From the NCBI GenBank assembly GCA_016213105.1, contig JACRBN010000010.1:124001-188000 (forward strand): a stretch of DNA of 64,000 nt, read 5' to 3'. The notes under the pieces were generated by a model that saw only the letters and a program-made list of their open reading frames with translations, was not told the origin of the DNA and searched no databases. Origin of the DNA: Chloroflexota bacterium. GTDB lineage: Bacteria > Chloroflexota > Anaerolineae > Anaerolineales > Villigracilaceae. Below are positions 16,823 to 33,847 of the stretch, in pieces. The position numbers were made by a program, and so were the translations under genes. Positions within the stretch are counted from its first letter, which is position 1, and every line of letters begins with the position of its first letter.

Positions 16823-19174
16823 CTACGGGCGGATCAATTGTGCCCGCACCCATACGCTATAGTCATTGCTGGAGTTTCCACCTGCGTCCACCTCCAGGAG
16901 GAAGATCCCGCTCTTTCCGAACAATCCGGGCGGGATGGAGACTTCCCAATCCTGCAATGTCCCATCATTGACCTGTGGCCATTCGCCAATCACTACCGCA
17001 TCCTGAAGTTCGCCCTCGCTGAATAAGAGGCGAAATGTGACTCCATCCTCATTGCTTTCGAGCGCAGGAGGATAGTGAAAACCGGTTTGGAAGACCAGGG
17101 TATCCCCCTTCCGCAGGACCAACATCGACAGATCGTAATAACCGCCCATCTTCCGATTGAAGCAGCCCGACTCACCGCAATACGGATAGGCCAAAATGAC
17201 CCGATGATCGACCCGACCCGATGAAAGCTCCGGACTCTGTTCCCAGCCAGCGTATGAGGAGAAATTCTCGAAGACAAAATCGATGGGAGAGGGGGAATAG
17301 GGTTCCATCAGAAACTGCAGGCTGCCGTTATTGTCATACCCAAAAGTCTGGCCGCCTTCGTAGGTTGCATAATATTCGCGCCAAAAAGCCTCATCGGCAG
17401 ATTCGACAAAATCGAACAGGATGACTGGAGGCGCAGTGGGTGTAATCGTCGGCGCAGGAGACGGGGTCTGTGTTGGCAAGGGAGGGTCGGTGAAAACGGC
17501 GGCTGGGGTGTCCGTGAAAGTCGCGGTGATCGCAGGAATATCGCTCTCGATGAAGGGCGCGGGCGTCACAGGCGGCGCATTTGGATACAGCCAAATTCCC
17601 ACCAGGATTGCCAGGACAATAAGAGCCATTGTTCCCGCGACGGCCGCGCCGCATCCGCAGTTGAAAAAACGACGGCAGCCCGACTGACCGCCTTTGACAG
17701 GGATCGGGATGCCCATCAGCACGTTAAGGTTGTGCTGCGTGAAGGCCAGCCCCGCCTTGTCACCGATCAGCCGGCGGATGTCGAGCGCCTGCGAGAGCAA
17801 GGCCTTGCCCTGTTCCACCAGGCCAAGGCACATGGCGCGGCTGCCCAACTGATGCAGCACCCATCCCTCGATATGTTTATCGCCCAACGCCCGCGCGGCC
17901 TTGAGAAGGATATTCAAAATCTCAGACCAGGCCTGCCAGCGCTTCCATAATGCATAGGTCTTTTCGAGCGCGCGCCCGATGCGGATGACCTCGGGCCATT
18001 TCTTCTTCTCCTCGGCCTTCTTCACCGCGCGGATGAGCGCCTCGGCCGACTCCTCCATCAACATCTGCGATGGCTGCTGCGCCACCCAGTTGACGAAGTA
18101 ATTGATCAGCGTGTCCTCCCACGAGGCCAGGTTCCAGGAGGTCGCCAACGTAAGCACCAGGTCGCCGCGCAAACTGTAGCGTGGACTATGCGCCTGCACC
18201 AGCCCCAGGTTCACCAGTCCGCGCGCGGCGGCCTGAACCTCGGGGTCGCTGGTCAGCGCCAGCAGGTGGTCGAGTGAAATGACCGCCCCATCTGAGGCGG
18301 CCAGGATGGCCAGAATCCGCCTTTGGGTTTCAGTCAGCGTGTTGAGCGCGGAGTTGGTGATCGCCTGTTCGGGGAGTTGGGCCTGAGCTTGATTCAGCAG
18401 GTCGGCCACGGCCAGATTGCGTTCGCGCACCAGGGCGGCGGCTTGCAGGATGCGCAGCGGATGTCCGCCCATCGATAGGCACAACGCCTTGACCTGAGCC
18501 CGTTCCCCGTCGCCGAACATTCGGCCTGACTCCCGTTCGAAGAGCGCCAGCGCTTCGGCTTCGGGCAGCCCACCCAACGGGACGAGTTTCCCTTCGCCCC
18601 ACAGGTTGCGCTGAGGCGACGCCAGCACAAACTGACATTGCGGCGCGGCATCCAGCAGAGTGGTTACTTCGTCGCGGGCCAGTTCCAGGTCGTCGAGGAT
18701 GATCAGCGCGCGCAGGTTCTGCAAGCCAAGGCGGATCTCGGCCTCGGTCGGCTTGAAGCTGGGCGGACTTTCGTTAAATGCATCGAACAAGGCTTGGAGC
18801 AGGTCGTCAAGGCGCAGGTCGGTCACATCCAAAAAGACAACCCCATCGGCAAACTGGGCAATCTCGGGCAGGTGGGCCAACTGGCGTAAAAAAGAGGTTT
18901 TGCCGATACCGCCGTCCCCAAACAAAGAAACGGGCGCCGAGGATTGCAAAGCCTCTCTGACCGTCGCAAACTCCGTCTCGCGATCCAGCAGGGCCTGAAA
19001 CGGACGCGGACGCAGGGACACAGGCGCGGGACGGCGGGTATAACGCGCAGCGCTGGACGGCGCCGCCACATTAACCACACCCCCGTTGACGTTGCCAATC
19101 TGGAGGATGTAACTGCCCACAGCCACCTGGCCGCTGACACTCCCCTTGATATCTACCTTTACATTTTCTACCAT
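16823..19174 (-). CDS. Membrane-spanning STAND/NB-ARC-type ATPase with extracytoplasmic C-terminal domain
   Basis: 783 residues from the ATG at 19174, which has AGAAAGG upstream; the frame extends 36 codons further into the next gene without support. Order of parts: an N-terminal beta tag (about 4-35) with GSVSGQVAVG; a P-loop NTPase with Walker A GDGGIGKTS (about 86-94) and Walker B ALIILDDLE (about 156-164); helical and winged-helix regions to about 350; TPR-like helices (about 370-480); one transmembrane helix (about 509-530); a Thr/Pro linker; and a globular domain of about 190 residues outside the cell. STAND ATPases are ligand-triggered switches in signalling and defence. An outside sensor joined to an inside NTPase suggests signalling across the membrane. 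The start gene of the pair is the nuclease-like gene at 19206. Confidence 0.82.
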   Translation of the reverse strand: MVENVKVDIKGSVSGQVAVGSYILQIGNVNGGVVNVAAPSSAARYTRRPAPVSLRPRPFQALLDRETEFATVREALQSSAPVSLFGDGGIGKTSFLRQLAHLPEIAQFADGVVFLDVTDLRLDDLLQALFDAFNESPPSFKPTEAEIRLGLQNLRALIILDDLELARDEVTTLLDAAPQCQFVLASPQRNLWGEGKLVPLGGLPEAEALALFERESGRMFGDGERAQVKALCLSMGGHPLRILQAAALVRERNLAVADLLNQAQAQLPEQAITNSALNTLTETQRRILAILAASDGAVISLDHLLALTSDPEVQAAARGLVNLGLVQAHSPRYSLRGDLVLTLATSWNLASWEDTLINYFVNWVAQQPSQMLMEESAEALIRAVKKAEEKKKWPEVIRIGRALEKTYALWKRWQAWSEILNILLKAARALGDKHIEGWVLHQLGSRAMCLGLVEQGKALLSQALDIRRLIGDKAGLAFTQHNLNVLMGIPIPVKGGQSGCRRFFNCGCGAAVAGTMALIVLAILVGIWLYPNAPPVTPAPFIESDIPAITATFTDTPAAVFTDPPLPTQTPSPAPTITPTAPPVILFDFVESADEAFWREYYATYEGGQTFGYDNNGSLQFLMEPYSPSPIDFVFENFSSYAGWEQSPELSSGRVDHRVILAYPYCGESGCFNRKMGGYYDLSMLVLRKGDTLVFQTGFHYPPALESNEDGVTFRLLFSEGELQDAVVIGEWPQVNDGTLQDWEVSIPPGLFGKSGIFLLEVDAGGNSSNDYSVWVRAQLIRP

Positions 19175-19205
19175 ACCAATAAACCTTTCTCGAAATGGGC
19201 ACCGA

Positions 19206-19808
19206 TCAACGTAATGGGACCACCCCTGGGCAGTGCGGATTATCCATGCAGCCGTAGTATTCCCTGCCTTTTTGCGGGCCATCGCGATGCACGCGCAGCA
19301 CCATCATGCGCCCGCAAATGGGGCACATCGGCACCGAGTCAGACGGGGCGTCTGTATGAGGGTTGGCATTGGATCTGGTCACCGCCAGTTGGAACAGATT
19401 GACCAGGTCCGAGATTACATACTTCTCAGTGGAAGGCACATGCACCAGCGGAATGCCCGCGCCCAGGAACAGATCCTGCATGAACTGGTCGGTGGAGCGC
19501 GTCTCGGATTTGTGAATCGGCTTGACCAATTCCACGCCAAAGGCGGGCTTCATCGTCTGCGGCTCGCACAACAGGAAATCCACGTGCTTGCGGAAGATCT
19601 TATTGAAATAATGAACGTTCTCATTGGGACGGACAATGGTAAAAATATCGTTCAGCGCCACCTTCGGACAGACAGCATAGCGGCCCTCGCTCATTTTCGT
19701 CAACGCGCGGAAGAGGGCGATTTCATTGGATGATAACAACTGCCCGCGCAGGCGGTAAGGGAGGCGATCATCACTCTTCGGAGGCGGGGCAGGTTTAATG
19801 TCGGTCAT
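19206..19808 (-). CDS. DUF2726-type (PD-(D/E)xK-like) protein with topoisomerase-type zinc ribbon
   Basis: 200 residues from the ATG at 19808. The N-terminal two thirds match the DUF2726 layout: LLSSNEIALFRAL, then HVDFLLCEPQTMKPAFGVEL with the conserved Asp and Glu of a restriction-endonuclease-like fold, and AGIPLVHVPS. The C-terminus is a four-Cys zinc ribbon (CPICGRMMVLR ... YYGCMDNPHCPG) like those at the end of topoisomerase I. A nuclease or DNA-binding role is inferred from the folds; activity is unproven for DUF2726. It lies 31 bp upstream of the STAND ATPase on the same strand, so the two probably form an operon. Confidence 0.8.
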   Translation of the reverse strand: MTDIKPAPPPKSDDRLPYRLRGQLLSSNEIALFRALTKMSEGRYAVCPKVALNDIFTIVRPNENVHYFNKIFRKHVDFLLCEPQTMKPAFGVELVKPIHKSETRSTDQFMQDLFLGAGIPLVHVPSTEKYVISDLVNLFQLAVTRSNANPHTDAPSDSVPMCPICGRMMVLRVHRDGPQKGREYYGCMDNPHCPGVVPLR

Positions 19809-19821
19809 GAAAGGTTGACCA

Positions 19822-19827
19822 ATTATA
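19822..19827 (-). promoter_or_regulatory. -10 element upstream of the DUF2726 gene
   Basis: On the minus strand TATAAT is followed by 13 nt and the ATG at 19808, which predicts a leader of only about 6 nt and no ribosome binding site. Confidence 0.45.
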
Positions 19828-19914
19828 GAACAACGCCAGACTGAAAGCAACAGCCTGGCATTGTTTACTACATTTCAAGCCACCGCCATTCCCAGCGCAG
19901 GAAGACTGATCATC

Positions 19915-31186: not shown

Positions 31187-32442
31187 ATCAGTAGTTCACG
31201 AAAAGGCATGAACATGGTTTACCTGGTTCCGGCCAAGGAGACCAAAAAGTCATGTTCAAACCCATCATTAAAAATAACCGAATTACGCTATCTCAACAAG
31301 TGTTGAATGCCTTGATTTACATTATGCGTCGATACTTGCCGCTTGTTCTCTGCAATACACGAATTACAGCGGATGACATCATTGCCGTGTTGGGTTATGC
31401 CAGCACAAATCGCACCAGCCTTGACGCTGCGTGCCAGGAGTTGCGGGACACGCCGTCAGCCAATCGTTTGCGCGAGGTGCTGGCACAAGTACTGCCAGAT
31501 CGTGCCAAATTACAACAGGAGCTTAATCGCATCTTACGGGCACAAACGCCAGACTTTGTCAAAAGAGGAAAGCGCTCGTACTACATTGCCATCGACTTGA
31601 CCTTGATTCCGTATCACGGTGAATGTTATGCCGATGAAAAAGAAATTGTGCGCAGTCAAGCCAAGTCGGGCACAACCCATTTTCACGGCTGAAAGCGCAA
31701 CGGTGTCGATAGTACACAACAACCAACGCTATGTTCTGGCATTGCGCTTCGTCGAAAAAGGCGAAAGCATGGACACGATCGTAAAATGGCTGTTGCAGCG
31801 GCTAAAATCTATGGGAGTCTCCATTCCCTCTGCCTACTTGGACAAAGGGTTTTGCTCCGTACCGGTTCTCAAGACATTGAAGAGACGAAAAATCAGATAC
31901 ATCATCCCGATCCGAGTGCGTGGCAAATCCGGCGGCGTTCGTGCCTTGTTTCAAAGGCGCGCCAGTTACCGAACCACTTATACATTCAATAGTCCAAAGC
32001 ATGGTCGCCTGGAGGTGGAAGCCGTTGCGACCAAGAAGTATTACAAAGGACGTTATAAACGCAAAGGTGCGCGCTGGTTTGCCTATGCGGTTGGCGGGTT
32101 GTCAAAGTCCGTTGAGCCGCATCAAGTTTTTAAGATGTATCGGCAACGCTTTGGTATTGAAACCAGTTATCGTCAAATGAACCAGGTACGCGCTCGAACC
32201 ACCTCTCAAAATCCAGTGATCTGTTTACTGTTGGTTGGCTTGGCATTCGTGATCTTCAATCTGTACATTGCCTGTCGAGAGCATCTCGCCGCCGTCTTAA
32301 AAAATCCTGTCAAGCCAATTTCCAAATACTGGTTGACCTTGCGTCGCTTAGCGCATATGATGTCTCTCGCAATTCAAGATTTGTTCGGCTTGGCTGATGT
32401 CATTCTACCCATGCTTATTTACCACTTTCGTGATCTACTGAT
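31187..32442 (+). mobile_element. ISH3-like insertion sequence, about 1.26 kb
   Basis: Terminal inverted repeats are visible: left ATCAGTAGTTCACGAAAAGG (31187-31206) and right end, read inward, ATCAGTAGATCACGAAAGTG (32442-32423), matching at about 17 of 20 positions. The element encodes an IS4-superfamily (ISH3-type) DDE transposase in two overlapping frames. I see no target-site duplication: the bases left of the element are not HsdR sequence while those on the right are. That is expected if a deletion started at the left end. Inside, base composition is lower in GC than the surrounding genome. Confidence 0.8.
31252..31692 (+). pseudogene. ISH3-like transposase, N-terminal part (frameshifted)
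   Basis: 146 residues covering the N-terminal helical domain and the first catalytic Asp block (KRSYYIAIDLTLIPYHG). It reaches the motif SGTTHFHG and stops; the continuing sequence TVSIVHNNQRYVLALRF is in the +1 frame, beginning in the overlap at 31660-31690. One extra T at about 31689-31692 explains the shift. The frameshift could be a mutation that kills the transposase or a programmed event; the surrounding TTTT run is short, so mutation is the simpler reading. Confidence 0.78.
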
Positions 32443-32791
32443 TATGCAATCGCTGATCAACGCCGAAAAAAGTGATTTGTTCGACGTGCTGGAATATATC
32501 TATAACAGCGACTTTGAACCTATCACACGCGAGCTTCGCGTTGCAAAAGCGCAATCCAAAATCTTCTCGGCTTTGAGCGTCGAGCAAAAGGGATTCGTGG
32601 AATTCGTGCTCTCCAAATACATCGAGACCGGCGTCGAAGAACTCGATCAGGAAAAACTACCCCACCTGCTCGTGCTCAAATACAAAGCCATCGAAGACGC
32701 CAAGGAAATCCTTGGCAGCGTGGAAAACATCCGCGCTATGTTCATCAACTTTCAAGGATACTTGTATGAACAACACGCAGCGGCCGCATAA
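31619..32791 (+). pseudogene. Chimeric ORF: transposase C-terminal part fused in frame to HsdR remnant
   Basis: Residues up to about 275 are the rest of the ISH3-type transposase: second catalytic region (SAYLDKGFCSVPVLKTL), RYIIPIRVRG, and the Y-(2)-R-(3)-E-(6)-K-like C1 box QRFGIETSYRQMNQVRART with the catalytic Glu. No stop codon occurs before the right inverted repeat, and the frame runs on into a C-terminal piece of a type I restriction subunit. The first about 20 codons of this ORF merely overlap the preceding frame. Whether any chimeric protein is made is unknown; it would lack the transposase start. Confidence 0.8.
32443..32791 (+). pseudogene. hsdR: hsdR remnant, C-terminal domain of type I restriction subunit
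   Basis: About 115 codons. The stretch SDLFDVLEYIYNSDFEPITRE, FVEFVLSKYIETGVEELDQ, EKLPHLLVLKYKAIEDA and FINFQGYLYEQ is the C-terminal helical domain of HsdR (EcoR124/EcoEI R type), the part that docks to the methylase. The motor and nuclease domains and the hsdM and hsdS genes are absent. The piece starts exactly at the right end of the insertion sequence. The most likely history is insertion of the element into hsdR followed by a deletion leftwards that removed the rest of the locus. Confidence 0.82.
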
Positions 32792-32793
32792 CG

Positions 32794-32799
32794 TATAAT
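32794..32799 (+). promoter_or_regulatory. -10 element, leaderless start of WD40-like gene
   Basis: TATAAT is followed by exactly 7 nt and ATG 32807; the context GCATAACGTATAATT resembles GCATACGTTATAATT at the RicT-like gene. It overlaps the end of the hsdR remnant. Confidence 0.55.
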
Positions 32800-32806
32800 T
32801 CATCCT

Positions 32807-33847
32807 ATGGCGAATGGCGCAGCGTTTTCTTTGAGGTTAAAGACACACCTCTACGATCCCAATGGGTGGGGTCCGGCCCCCAAGGATTTTTCGATTTCAC
32901 CGGATGGGCACTTGATTGCCGTCAAAGCATCCAAAAATGGTGAAAACATTTTTGTGTATGATACGAAGGCAAATTTAATAGCTTCGTTCGAAAGCCCGCA
33001 CGAGATTGAACGTGGCATCACTTTCTGGCCGGATGGCTATCACCTGCTGGTTTCGGCCCCAGGCAACGACACCCCCTACGGTACGGAAAGGTTGATCGTA
33101 TGGGAATTGGGTCAGAGCAATTCTTTCGCTGAAGTGCCCTATTTTGTCCCCGCGAAAGGGCTCAGGCCTGTATCCTCTCGAAATCAATTTGCAATAGTGA
33201 TCGGCGGTAATAAAATTTTCTGTTTGAACGGGAACGTTTCATCCACGCGGGAAATTGAGCCAGGCAATGTTTTTTATTCGCAGGCTCAATTTTCTCCCAA
33301 TGGAAAATTCATTGGCTTATATGGACTGTATGGGCCTCCAAATGGGAGCGTCCTGTCTCTTCCACATAATTCTGAATGGCATAAAAATACCCTGCAAACC
33401 CTATGGAAAGGCGCTGAAAGCTTTCTCTGTTTTACACATGACGATCAAGGCTTTATCACGGCCGGCCCTTCCCATTTTTACATTCGGGAGCTGGATGATC
33501 CGCAAAAATTTAAAGAACAGGATCATGCCCTGAATGCGTCCACGGGGAATGTCTCCCCGGATGGGCAGCTTCTTGTATTTGGCGGTCACGAAGGCGCCAT
33601 TTCCCTCTTTGGCAGGCAGGGACAGGCTTATCAATTAATTCAAAAAATTCCCGCCGCGCATAACGACAAGATTGAAACGATTAGGTTCTCCAGCGATTCT
33701 AATGAAATCATTTCAGCCGATAAAAACGAAATAAAAATCTGGCAATTGGAAAGAAACCCGCAGCCTGCGGTTGTCAATACAGTCCATGTAAATGGCAGCG
33801 TAAGTGGAAATGTTATTGTTGGAAACGAAAATAAAATCTCAAAATAA
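32807..33847 (+). CDS. Cytoplasmic WD40/propeller-like protein with C-terminal GSVSG tag
   Basis: 346 residues with no signal peptide or transmembrane segment. Blade motifs are seen in several places: FSISPDGHLIAVKAS, GITFWPDGYHLLVSA, AQFSPNGKFIGLYG, NVSPDGQLLVFGGHEG and IRFSSDSNEIISADKNEIKIWQL, so a seven-bladed propeller is likely. The last 24 residues contain VHVNGSVSGNVIVGNENKI, strongly similar to the N-terminal tag of the STAND ATPase at 16823 (VKVDIKGSVSGQVAVG). The gene is less GC-rich than its neighbours and lies beside an IS and a restriction remnant. Binding partner and function are unknown; a sensor or adaptor in a conflict system is possible. Confidence 0.75.
   Translation: MANGAAFSLRLKTHLYDPNGWGPAPKDFSISPDGHLIAVKASKNGENIFVYDTKANLIASFESPHEIERGITFWPDGYHLLVSAPGNDTPYGTERLIVWELGQSNSFAEVPYFVPAKGLRPVSSRNQFAIVIGGNKIFCLNGNVSSTREIEPGNVFYSQAQFSPNGKFIGLYGLYGPPNGSVLSLPHNSEWHKNTLQTLWKGAESFLCFTHDDQGFITAGPSHFYIRELDDPQKFKEQDHALNASTGNVSPDGQLLVFGGHEGAISLFGRQGQAYQLIQKIPAAHNDKIETIRFSSDSNEIISADKNEIKIWQLERNPQPAVVNTVHVNGSVSGNVIVGNENKISK

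What the first reader, a model, noticed from the sequence alone, without database searches (positions are those of the whole stretch)
32807..33847. WD40-like protein shares a GSVSG-x-V-x-VG tag with the distant STAND ATPase
The WD40-like protein ends with VHVNGSVSGNVIVGNENKI and the STAND protein begins with VKVDIKGSVSGQVAVG; both tags lie at a terminus, next to no catalytic domain. Such short beta repeats recur at the ends of conflict-type NTPases, proteases and propellers in filamentous and Chloroflexota bacteria and are thought to act as adaptor modules. If so, propeller (sensor) and STAND ATPase (switch) could assemble in trans, though they are 14 kb apart. The WD40 gene sits next to an IS and a restriction-enzyme remnant, a typical defence-gene setting.
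Basis: partly seen in the sequence, partly recalled or inferred. Interest (0 to 1): 0.7.

Follow-up and report, generated by a model that had tools for sequence, protein, structure and literature searches.

The report
Shared terminal tag linking bacterial conflict proteins
A short protein tag at the end of an unusual propeller protein also sits on immune-type switches, proteases and other signalling proteins of the same bacterium, which suggests a common plug that lets sensors and effectors assemble, although the propeller itself is only one late and optional member.

Summary
The WD40-like ORF (32807-33847 +) ends in GSVSGNVIVG, 7 residues before its stop; the STAND ORF (true start probably 19174, minus strand) begins with GSVSGQVAVG. 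As a bare 8/10 match this is not unusual (33 of 12,142 window ORF pairs), but profiles show a motif family: nine loci in this genome at E<=1e-3 (eight are training rows), on TIR, trypsin, LRR-Roco, NACHT, STAND and WD40 proteins and a 48-aa ORF, plus four weaker ones. All 13 out-of-sample hits in other genomes of the phylum lie on conflict-type or receptor-like proteins. In 10 of 12 actinobacterial genomes the tag occurs exactly twice, on a STAND and its small neighbour. STAND-type proteins carry it before the NTPase (11 of 11); TIR, trypsin and caspase proteins mostly C-terminally (6 of 7). This is the layout of NLR-effector amyloid signalling motifs. Best reading: a homotypic beta-tag, probably amyloid-type, used as shared currency; a new variant of a known kind. 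Amyloid formation and defence function are untested.

The parts
32807..33847 (+). WD40-like beta-propeller ORF, 346 aa, orphan, 46% GC
   Evidence: Pfam WD40 5.1e-7 and many beta-propeller models; best PDB sequence match 2ymu WD-40 repeat protein; GC 0.461, GC3 0.47; no orthologue found.
33779..33838 (+). C-terminal tag TVHVNGSVSGNVIVGNENKI (core 33794-33823)
   Evidence: leave-one-out E 5.3e-4. The Pfam WD40 repeat ends at residue 312; most propeller-model matches end by residue 319, a few run to 324-334; the tag core starts at 330.
16823..19174 (-). STAND (NB-ARC-like + TPR) ORF from the probable true start, 783 aa; listed ORF begins at 19282
   Evidence: Foldseek top hits 6mfv STAND-TPR and Apaf-1.
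19100..19159 (-). N-terminal tag KVDIKGSVSGQVAVGSYILQ (core 19115-19144), followed by a second unit ILQIGNVNGGVVNV
   Evidence: Gly 11, 15 and 20 invariant and Val 13 nearly invariant among ten STANDs, the nine others 22-77% identical to it.
18344..19021 (-). NTPase region of the STAND, aligned with CED-4, Apaf-1 and plant NLRs
   Evidence: Model residues 52-277.
17591..17647 (-). Predicted transmembrane helix (model residues 510-528); the part beyond it is probably extracytoplasmic
   Evidence: Helix in the model; hydrophobic run followed by a Pro/Thr-rich stretch, read by eye; topology not tested.
31252..32272 (+). ISH3-family transposase split over two overlapping frames
   Evidence: NCBIfam NF033541, E 1.3e-18 and 4.2e-37, both below its curated cut-off score.
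32462..32791 (+). C-terminal remnant of a type I restriction subunit R, in frame behind the transposase; its stop ends 15 bases before the WD40 ATG
   Evidence: Pfam EcoEI_R_C 1.5e-12; NCBIfam EcoAI R 8.1e-10, partial.

Best explanation
The tag is a short homotypic beta-motif that lets STAND-type switches gather effectors. Shown here: a recurring motif of about 20 residues, roughly [IV]x[IV]xG[DSN]V[ST]Gx[VIL]x[VIL]G[DN]xN; it lies N-terminal to the NTPase in STANDs and mostly at the C-terminus of TIR, trypsin and caspase proteins; in the actinobacterial genomes examined it is confined to adjacent gene pairs; in this genome it is spread over about a dozen loci. Inferred: on sensing a signal (for the window STAND perhaps at an extracytoplasmic domain), the STAND oligomerises as Apaf-1-like NTPases do, its tags stack into a beta, probably amyloid-like, nucleus, and this templates and clusters proteins with C-terminal tags, activating the effectors. 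The WD40 protein is an acquired accessory member that could join the same nucleus as scaffold, regulator or extra input; it is not a dedicated partner of this STAND.
For: Family beyond chance: leave-one-out profiles recover the trypsin, TIR, 48-aa ORF, Roco, WD40 and NACHT tags at genome-scaled E 4.9e-6 to 2.2e-3 (6 of 8 rows). Domain company: 13 of 13 out-of-sample hits at E<=1e-3 in other genomes of the phylum are on STAND (3), TIR (2), trypsin, caspase, Roco, TCAD2 or similar small (3) and TM-plus-ectodomain (2) proteins (the similar small one and the TM segments are by eye). Pairing: 10 of 12 actinobacterial genomes hold exactly two tags at E<=0.01 in 6-9 Mb, 434-2,558 bases apart; one tag of each pair was not a row of the profile, and each pair is a STAND plus a small neighbour; chance product 4e-35, overstated because the species fall in related groups. 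Two Chloroflexota STANDs also have a tagged neighbour, at weak E (0.085 and 0.4). Polarity: STAND 11 N / 0 C against effector enzymes 1 N / 6 C, Fisher p 4e-4. Position: in 10 of 35 tagged proteins the stop follows 7-18 residues after the tag, 22 have it near the N-terminus, 3 inside. Pattern kept while residues change: 18 of 24 tag substitutions between congeners are conservative, against 241 of 593 elsewhere, p 0.001. The same layout is described for bacterial amyloid signalling sequences (PMC7889193, passages).
Against: No fibre, binding or phenotype data. The tag is modelled with low confidence (STAND residues 1-42 pLDDT below 50, drawn as two strands). Tag identity between congener orthologues is not consistently above the protein average (TIR 10/20 against 141/203). 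One TIR (L073) and the small actinobacterial and Chloroflexota partners carry the tag N-terminally, so the polarity rule is not strict. Window STAND and G001 STAND have no tagged neighbour in cis. Leave-one-out fails for the window STAND and is weak for NACHT-FGE (0.42); a profile of other organisms' STAND tags finds only 7 of the 13 own-genome tag loci at E<=10. Three weaker own-genome members (E 0.063, 0.60, 3.15) and the zinc-ribbon one (E 1.2) are accepted partly on domain company.
Confidence: 0.6

Rival explanations
1. The tag is a beta docking peptide, not an amyloid: it adds a strand to a common receptor protein, or pairs in simple dimers, so that tagged proteins gather on a third component.
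For: Short, mostly terminal, often behind Pro/Gln-rich linkers (read by eye); valine, isoleucine and glycine pattern fits strand addition; substitutions mostly conservative (18 of 24). No amyloid test was possible.
Against: In 10 of 12 actinobacterial genomes the only two tagged genes are neighbours and both carry the same motif, which suits like-with-like contact better than a hidden receptor.
Confidence: 0.25
2. One reading: WD40 propeller as sensor and STAND as switch form a dedicated pair in trans through the tag.
For: Same tag, 14.7 kb apart; propellers are common STAND sensors (established knowledge).
Against: WD40 gene not found in the congener that has the STAND, nor in 400 phylum genomes; about a dozen other tagged loci; 6% chance of such proximity; synteny with the congener breaks at the IS-WD40 stretch; a C-terminal tag is the effector-side position.
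Confidence: 0.06
3. The WD40 tail is only the last or closing strand of its propeller, and its likeness to the tag is chance.
For: A beta-strand at a propeller's end is expected; the raw 8/10 match is unexceptional; a few propeller-model and PDB matches run to residues 324-334; the single-sequence model is too poor to decide. Odds raised from 0.07 on recheck for the third point.
Against: The Pfam WD40 repeat ends at residue 312 and most longer matches by 319, while the tag core is 330-339; leave-one-out E 5.3e-4 genome-wide; the distance from tag to stop (7) is like that in the trypsin and Roco proteins (8 and 7).
Confidence: 0.08

Closest known systems
Bacterial amyloid signalling sequences (BASS 1-10) linking NLR and BELL proteins (Dyrka et al. 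2020, not held; seen only through passages of PMC7889193, PMC8086366 and PMC12261475)
   Same: Short motif, N-terminal on NLRs and C-terminal on effectors, adjacent genes, also on CHAT and TIR proteins, mainly multicellular bacteria.
   Different: Here also on trypsin, caspase, Roco, WD40 and apparently membrane-anchored STANDs; small partners often carry it N-terminally; dispersed over the genome rather than paired in the window's genus. Whether the motif equals one of BASS 1-10 could not be checked: the paper is not held and logos are not readable.
RHIM / PP / BASS3
   Same: Short beta-core ending in hydrophobic-x-hydrophobic-Gly; four Chloroflexota STAND tags have a following LQIG.
   Different: No Gln in the core: strict tetrad (V/I)Q(V/I/L/C)G in 0 of 48 tag segments.
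Effector-associated domains (EADs), Kaur et al. 2020 (PMC7159879, section 30 read) and 2021 (PMC8195603, passages)
   Same: Copies on a core NTPase component and on effectors, terminal, adjacent or scattered genes, homotypic coupling proposed.
   Different: EADs are small domains, mostly alpha-helical, a few alpha+beta; this is a beta-type peptide of about 20 residues.
Antiviral STANDs (Avs) and bacterial NLR-related NACHT proteins
   Same: STAND/NACHT switch core; Avs3 and an AVAST5 filament appear in the fold matches.
   Different: No effector domain recognised on the window STAND; a predicted TM helix and a C-terminal part that varies between homologues instead; no hit to PADLOC models at E<=0.01.

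Membership tests
BASS (bacterial amyloid signalling sequences) | Motif at the N-terminus of an NLR/STAND | tested here: met
   11 of 11 STAND-type proteins have it before the NTPase; in two of them it lies about 170 residues in.
BASS (bacterial amyloid signalling sequences) | Same motif in an adjacent gene | tested here: met
   10 of 12 actinobacterial genomes, two Chloroflexota loci at weak E; not for the window STAND.
BASS (bacterial amyloid signalling sequences) | Partner is a C-terminally tagged BELL domain | tested here: inconclusive
   A helical-looking protein with C-terminal tag lies 3.8 kb from a tagged NACHT, but I know of no BELL model in the libraries and Pfam finds nothing above cut-off; the other small partners carry the tag N-terminally.
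BASS (bacterial amyloid signalling sequences) | Match to one of the ten BASS profiles | not testable with these tools
   Source paper not held; motif logos not readable.
BASS (bacterial amyloid signalling sequences) | Forms amyloid or prion | not testable with these tools
   Needs experiment.
RHIM / PP / BASS3 | Core tetrad (V/I)-Q-(V/I/L/C)-G (PMC9444067, passages) | tested here: not met
   0 of 48 distinct tag segments; relaxed LQIG in 4.
EAD | Small, mostly alpha-helical domain | tested here: not met
   About 20 residues of beta pattern; drawn as strands, low confidence.
EAD | Copies on a core component and on effectors, terminal | tested here: met
STAND NTPase (window 16823-19174) | NB-ARC-like NTPase fold with helical repeats | tested here: met
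   NB-ARC 22.7 bits, just under the 23.5 cut-off, but 46.2 in homologue L110; Apaf-1 Z 16.1, rmsd 10.9, 377 aligned; Foldseek E 5.3e-13 to a STAND-TPR protein.
WD40 propeller (window 32807-33847) | WD repeat above the Pfam cut-off | tested here: met
   PF00400 30.4 bits against 27, one stretch; a whole propeller is not shown, model pLDDT 40.9.

The most novel reading that the evidence does not exclude
In this genus one beta-tag has become a shared signalling currency: membrane-anchored NLR-like receptors with extracytoplasmic domains outside and the tag inside (relatives carry lectin-like, PAN or FGE domains) nucleate a common amyloid hub that recruits TIR, trypsin, Roco GTPase and propeller proteins in many-to-many fashion, unlike the private NLR-effector pairs known from fungi and Actinobacteria.
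Probability: 0.25. Interest if true: 0.85.

Novelty: new variant of a known kind. Interest (0 to 1): 0.58.

Why it matters
If right, a bacterium outside the groups where signalling amyloids are mainly reported (Actinobacteria and Cyanobacteria, PMC7889193 passages) wires proteases, TIR enzymes, Roco GTPases and a propeller to STAND receptors through one peptide, with some receptors apparently looking outside the cell. The paired form in Streptomyces and Nocardiopsis and the scattered form here give a natural comparison for how a private immune pair could become a shared network, and the tag is short enough to test directly with peptides.

Tried and rejected
Window-only comparison of the two tags: not informative alone (33 of 12,142 pairs reach 8/10). 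DNA pattern for the motif in the own genome: 31 forward and 30 reverse matches against 19 and 11 for the backward control, so many are chance; only the first 30 places became loci and were read, plus C25 and C28 places fetched. C25:834782 (40-aa frame) and C16:58298 (E 4.58) were dropped as chance. PDB profile search with the tag: only a Sec31A match at E 0.066, taken as chance. PADLOC at E<=0.01: no model for the WD40, the STAND, the Roco or the NACHT-FGE protein. WD40 relatives: none in viral contigs by short exact peptide patterns; in 400 phylum genomes only weak repeat matches, 22-38% identical. WD40 structure from its single sequence: unusable, not searched. Promoter scan: no consensus site on the + strand upstream of the WD40 ATG within 32600-32807. 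Foldseek and VIA rows cover the STAND core only; the tag and the C-terminal part were not tested alone. Dedicated WD40-STAND pair and RHIM membership rejected for the reasons given. Literature: searches listed no paper that I recognised as describing this tag (I read passages of nine papers and one section), but figures, supplements and the main BASS paper could not be read, so it may be in print.

Full report
OBSERVATION. The WD40-like ORF (346 aa, 32807-33847 +) ends ...TVHVNGSVSGNVIVGNENKISK and the STAND ORF (16823-19282 -) carries VKVDIKGSVSGQVAVG near its start. The congener's frame is closed seven residues upstream of the matching Met, so the STAND probably starts at 19174 and the tag core at residue 11. 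A plain 8/10 match is common among window ORFs (33 of 12,142 non-overlapping pairs), so the observation needed other evidence.

FAMILY. Searching the own genome (5.39 Mb, 28 contigs) with the WD40 tail gave seven places; with an eight-row profile, 13, nine at E<=1e-3, eight of these being the training rows. The nine are TIR (tag C-terminal), LRR-Roc-COR (C), Trypsin_2 (C), WD40 (C), two NACHT proteins (one with FGE-sulfatase), DUF4062-STAND and the window STAND (tag before the NTPase), and a 48-aa ORF that looks like a NACHT remnant. Weaker members: a second Roco (tag 104 residues before the stop), a third NACHT and a 193-aa-frame helical-looking protein 3.8 kb from the NACHT-FGE gene (E 0.60, 3.15, 0.063), and a zinc-ribbon protein (E 1.2). 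One hit (C16, E 4.58) was dropped as chance. With each row left out, six of eight are recovered at E<=2.2e-3, NACHT-FGE at 0.42 and the STAND not at all. A profile made only from other organisms' STAND tags hits seven ORFs in the stretches of this genome that I held (window plus ten), all tagged; in the window just the WD40 and STAND (E 0.14 and 0.3 genome-wide); it misses the other six tag loci.

DISTRIBUTION. Tags at E<=1e-3 occur in 7 of 61 relatives including the own genome and in 5 of 400 phylum genomes; 9 of the 13 phylum hits are in the own genome, a figure inflated because eight of its tags trained the profile. The 13 distinct hits outside the own genome were not rows of the profile used, and all lie on STAND (3), TIR (2), trypsin, caspase C14, Roco, TCAD2 (2, Pfam), a similar small protein, or membrane-plus-ectodomain proteins (2); the similar small protein and the membrane segments are judged by eye. 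A DNA pattern scan of the 84,980-species collection gave 18 loci, 6 Chloroflexota and 12 Actinobacteria. I searched the whole genomes of 16 of these 18 loci (12 actinobacterial, 4 Chloroflexota): 10 of the 12 actinobacterial genomes have exactly two tags at E<=0.01, 434-2,558 bases apart, and one of each two was not a row of the profile. Reading them, each of the ten pairs is a STAND and a small gene: in seven a gene of about 80 residues with a second conserved stretch, in three (Nocardiopsis) a longer helical-looking one. The other two genomes have one tag at that threshold; next to it one search shows a second at 0.012 (L090) and one not significant (16, L084). The four Chloroflexota have 1, 2, 1 and 1. 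The ten genomes are related, so they are not ten independent events.

POLARITY AND POSITION. Among 35 tagged proteins (congener orthologues of STAND, TIR, trypsin and Roco left out, as are further actinobacterial copies), 10 have the tag 7-18 residues from the stop, 22 near the start (two of these depend on which start is used) and 3 inside. STAND-type: 11 of 11 before the NTPase. TIR, trypsin and caspase: 6 C-terminal, 1 N-terminal (p 4e-4; grouping made after seeing the data). Between congeners, 18 of 24 tag substitutions are conservative against 241 of 593 elsewhere (p 0.001; four orthologue pairs), while plain identity of the tag is not consistently raised.

THE TWO WINDOW GENES. The STAND is conserved in the congener in synteny, and across ten homologues the tag glycines are invariant. 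Its model (mean pLDDT 62.7) has a good NTPase-TPR core (residues about 45-485), matching a STAND-TPR protein, Apaf-1, CED-4 and plant NLRs, a helix at 510-528 that reads as transmembrane, and a low-confidence C-terminal part; two Chloroflexota homologues have lectin-like and PAN domains there. It has no tagged neighbour in cis, unlike homologues L110 and L114. The WD40 gene is different: GC 46% and GC3 0.47 between genes with GC3 0.82-0.84, directly behind an ISH3-family transposase fused in frame to a type I restriction R remnant, at a break of synteny with the congener (window 31.1 kb lies on its contig 10, 33.85 kb on contig 6; only 40 of 193 candidate matches were scored, but the stretch between has no counterpart beside either flank), and without a detected orthologue. 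It is the only propeller among the 35 tagged proteins.

MECHANISM. The layout (receptor-side tag before the NTPase, effector-side tag mostly at the C-terminus, paired neighbours) is that of NLR-effector amyloid signalling (PMC7889193 passages), and the coupling logic is that of EADs (PMC7159879 section 30). I therefore infer homotypic, probably amyloid-type, stacking nucleated by the STAND oligomer. Assembly, amyloid, effector activation and defence are inferred, not shown. The WD40 protein is best seen as an acquired accessory member.

NOVELTY. The principle is known; the motif lacks the RHIM tetrad (0 of 48) and is not an EAD-type domain; whether it is one of BASS 1-10 could not be checked. 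New here, as far as the searches went, are the range of partners, the genome-wide spread and the apparently membrane-anchored STANDs.

Noticed in passing
31252-32791 +: ISH3-family transposase in two overlapping frames, the second fused in frame to the last ~100 residues of a type I restriction subunit R.
   Followed up: partly
19206-19850 -: DUF2726 protein with a zinc ribbon just upstream of the STAND gene; the DNA is conserved there in the congener.
   Followed up: no
L165:959-2410 (own genome, C28): Next to the tagged TIR gene lies a TIR-FGE-sulfatase fusion, a possible sensor-effector neighbour.
   Followed up: no
L110:3407-6100 and L114:26-2806: STAND homologues with N-terminal tag, NB-ARC, predicted TM (by eye) and C-terminal lectin-like plus PAN domains, each beside a small tagged gene.
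   Followed up: partly
L041:4302-4445 (own genome, C7): 48-aa ORF holding little more than the tag, resembling the N-terminus of the tagged NACHT protein at C7:29010; relic or tag-only protein.
   Followed up: no
L076:2339-2590, L088:4067-4555, L153, L154, L155, L157: Small Streptomyces-type genes after the tagged STAND carry the tag near their start and a second conserved C-terminal stretch.
   Followed up: partly
L115 and L116: The tag sits N-terminal to a TCAD2 domain, named by Pfam as ternary complex associated.
   Followed up: no
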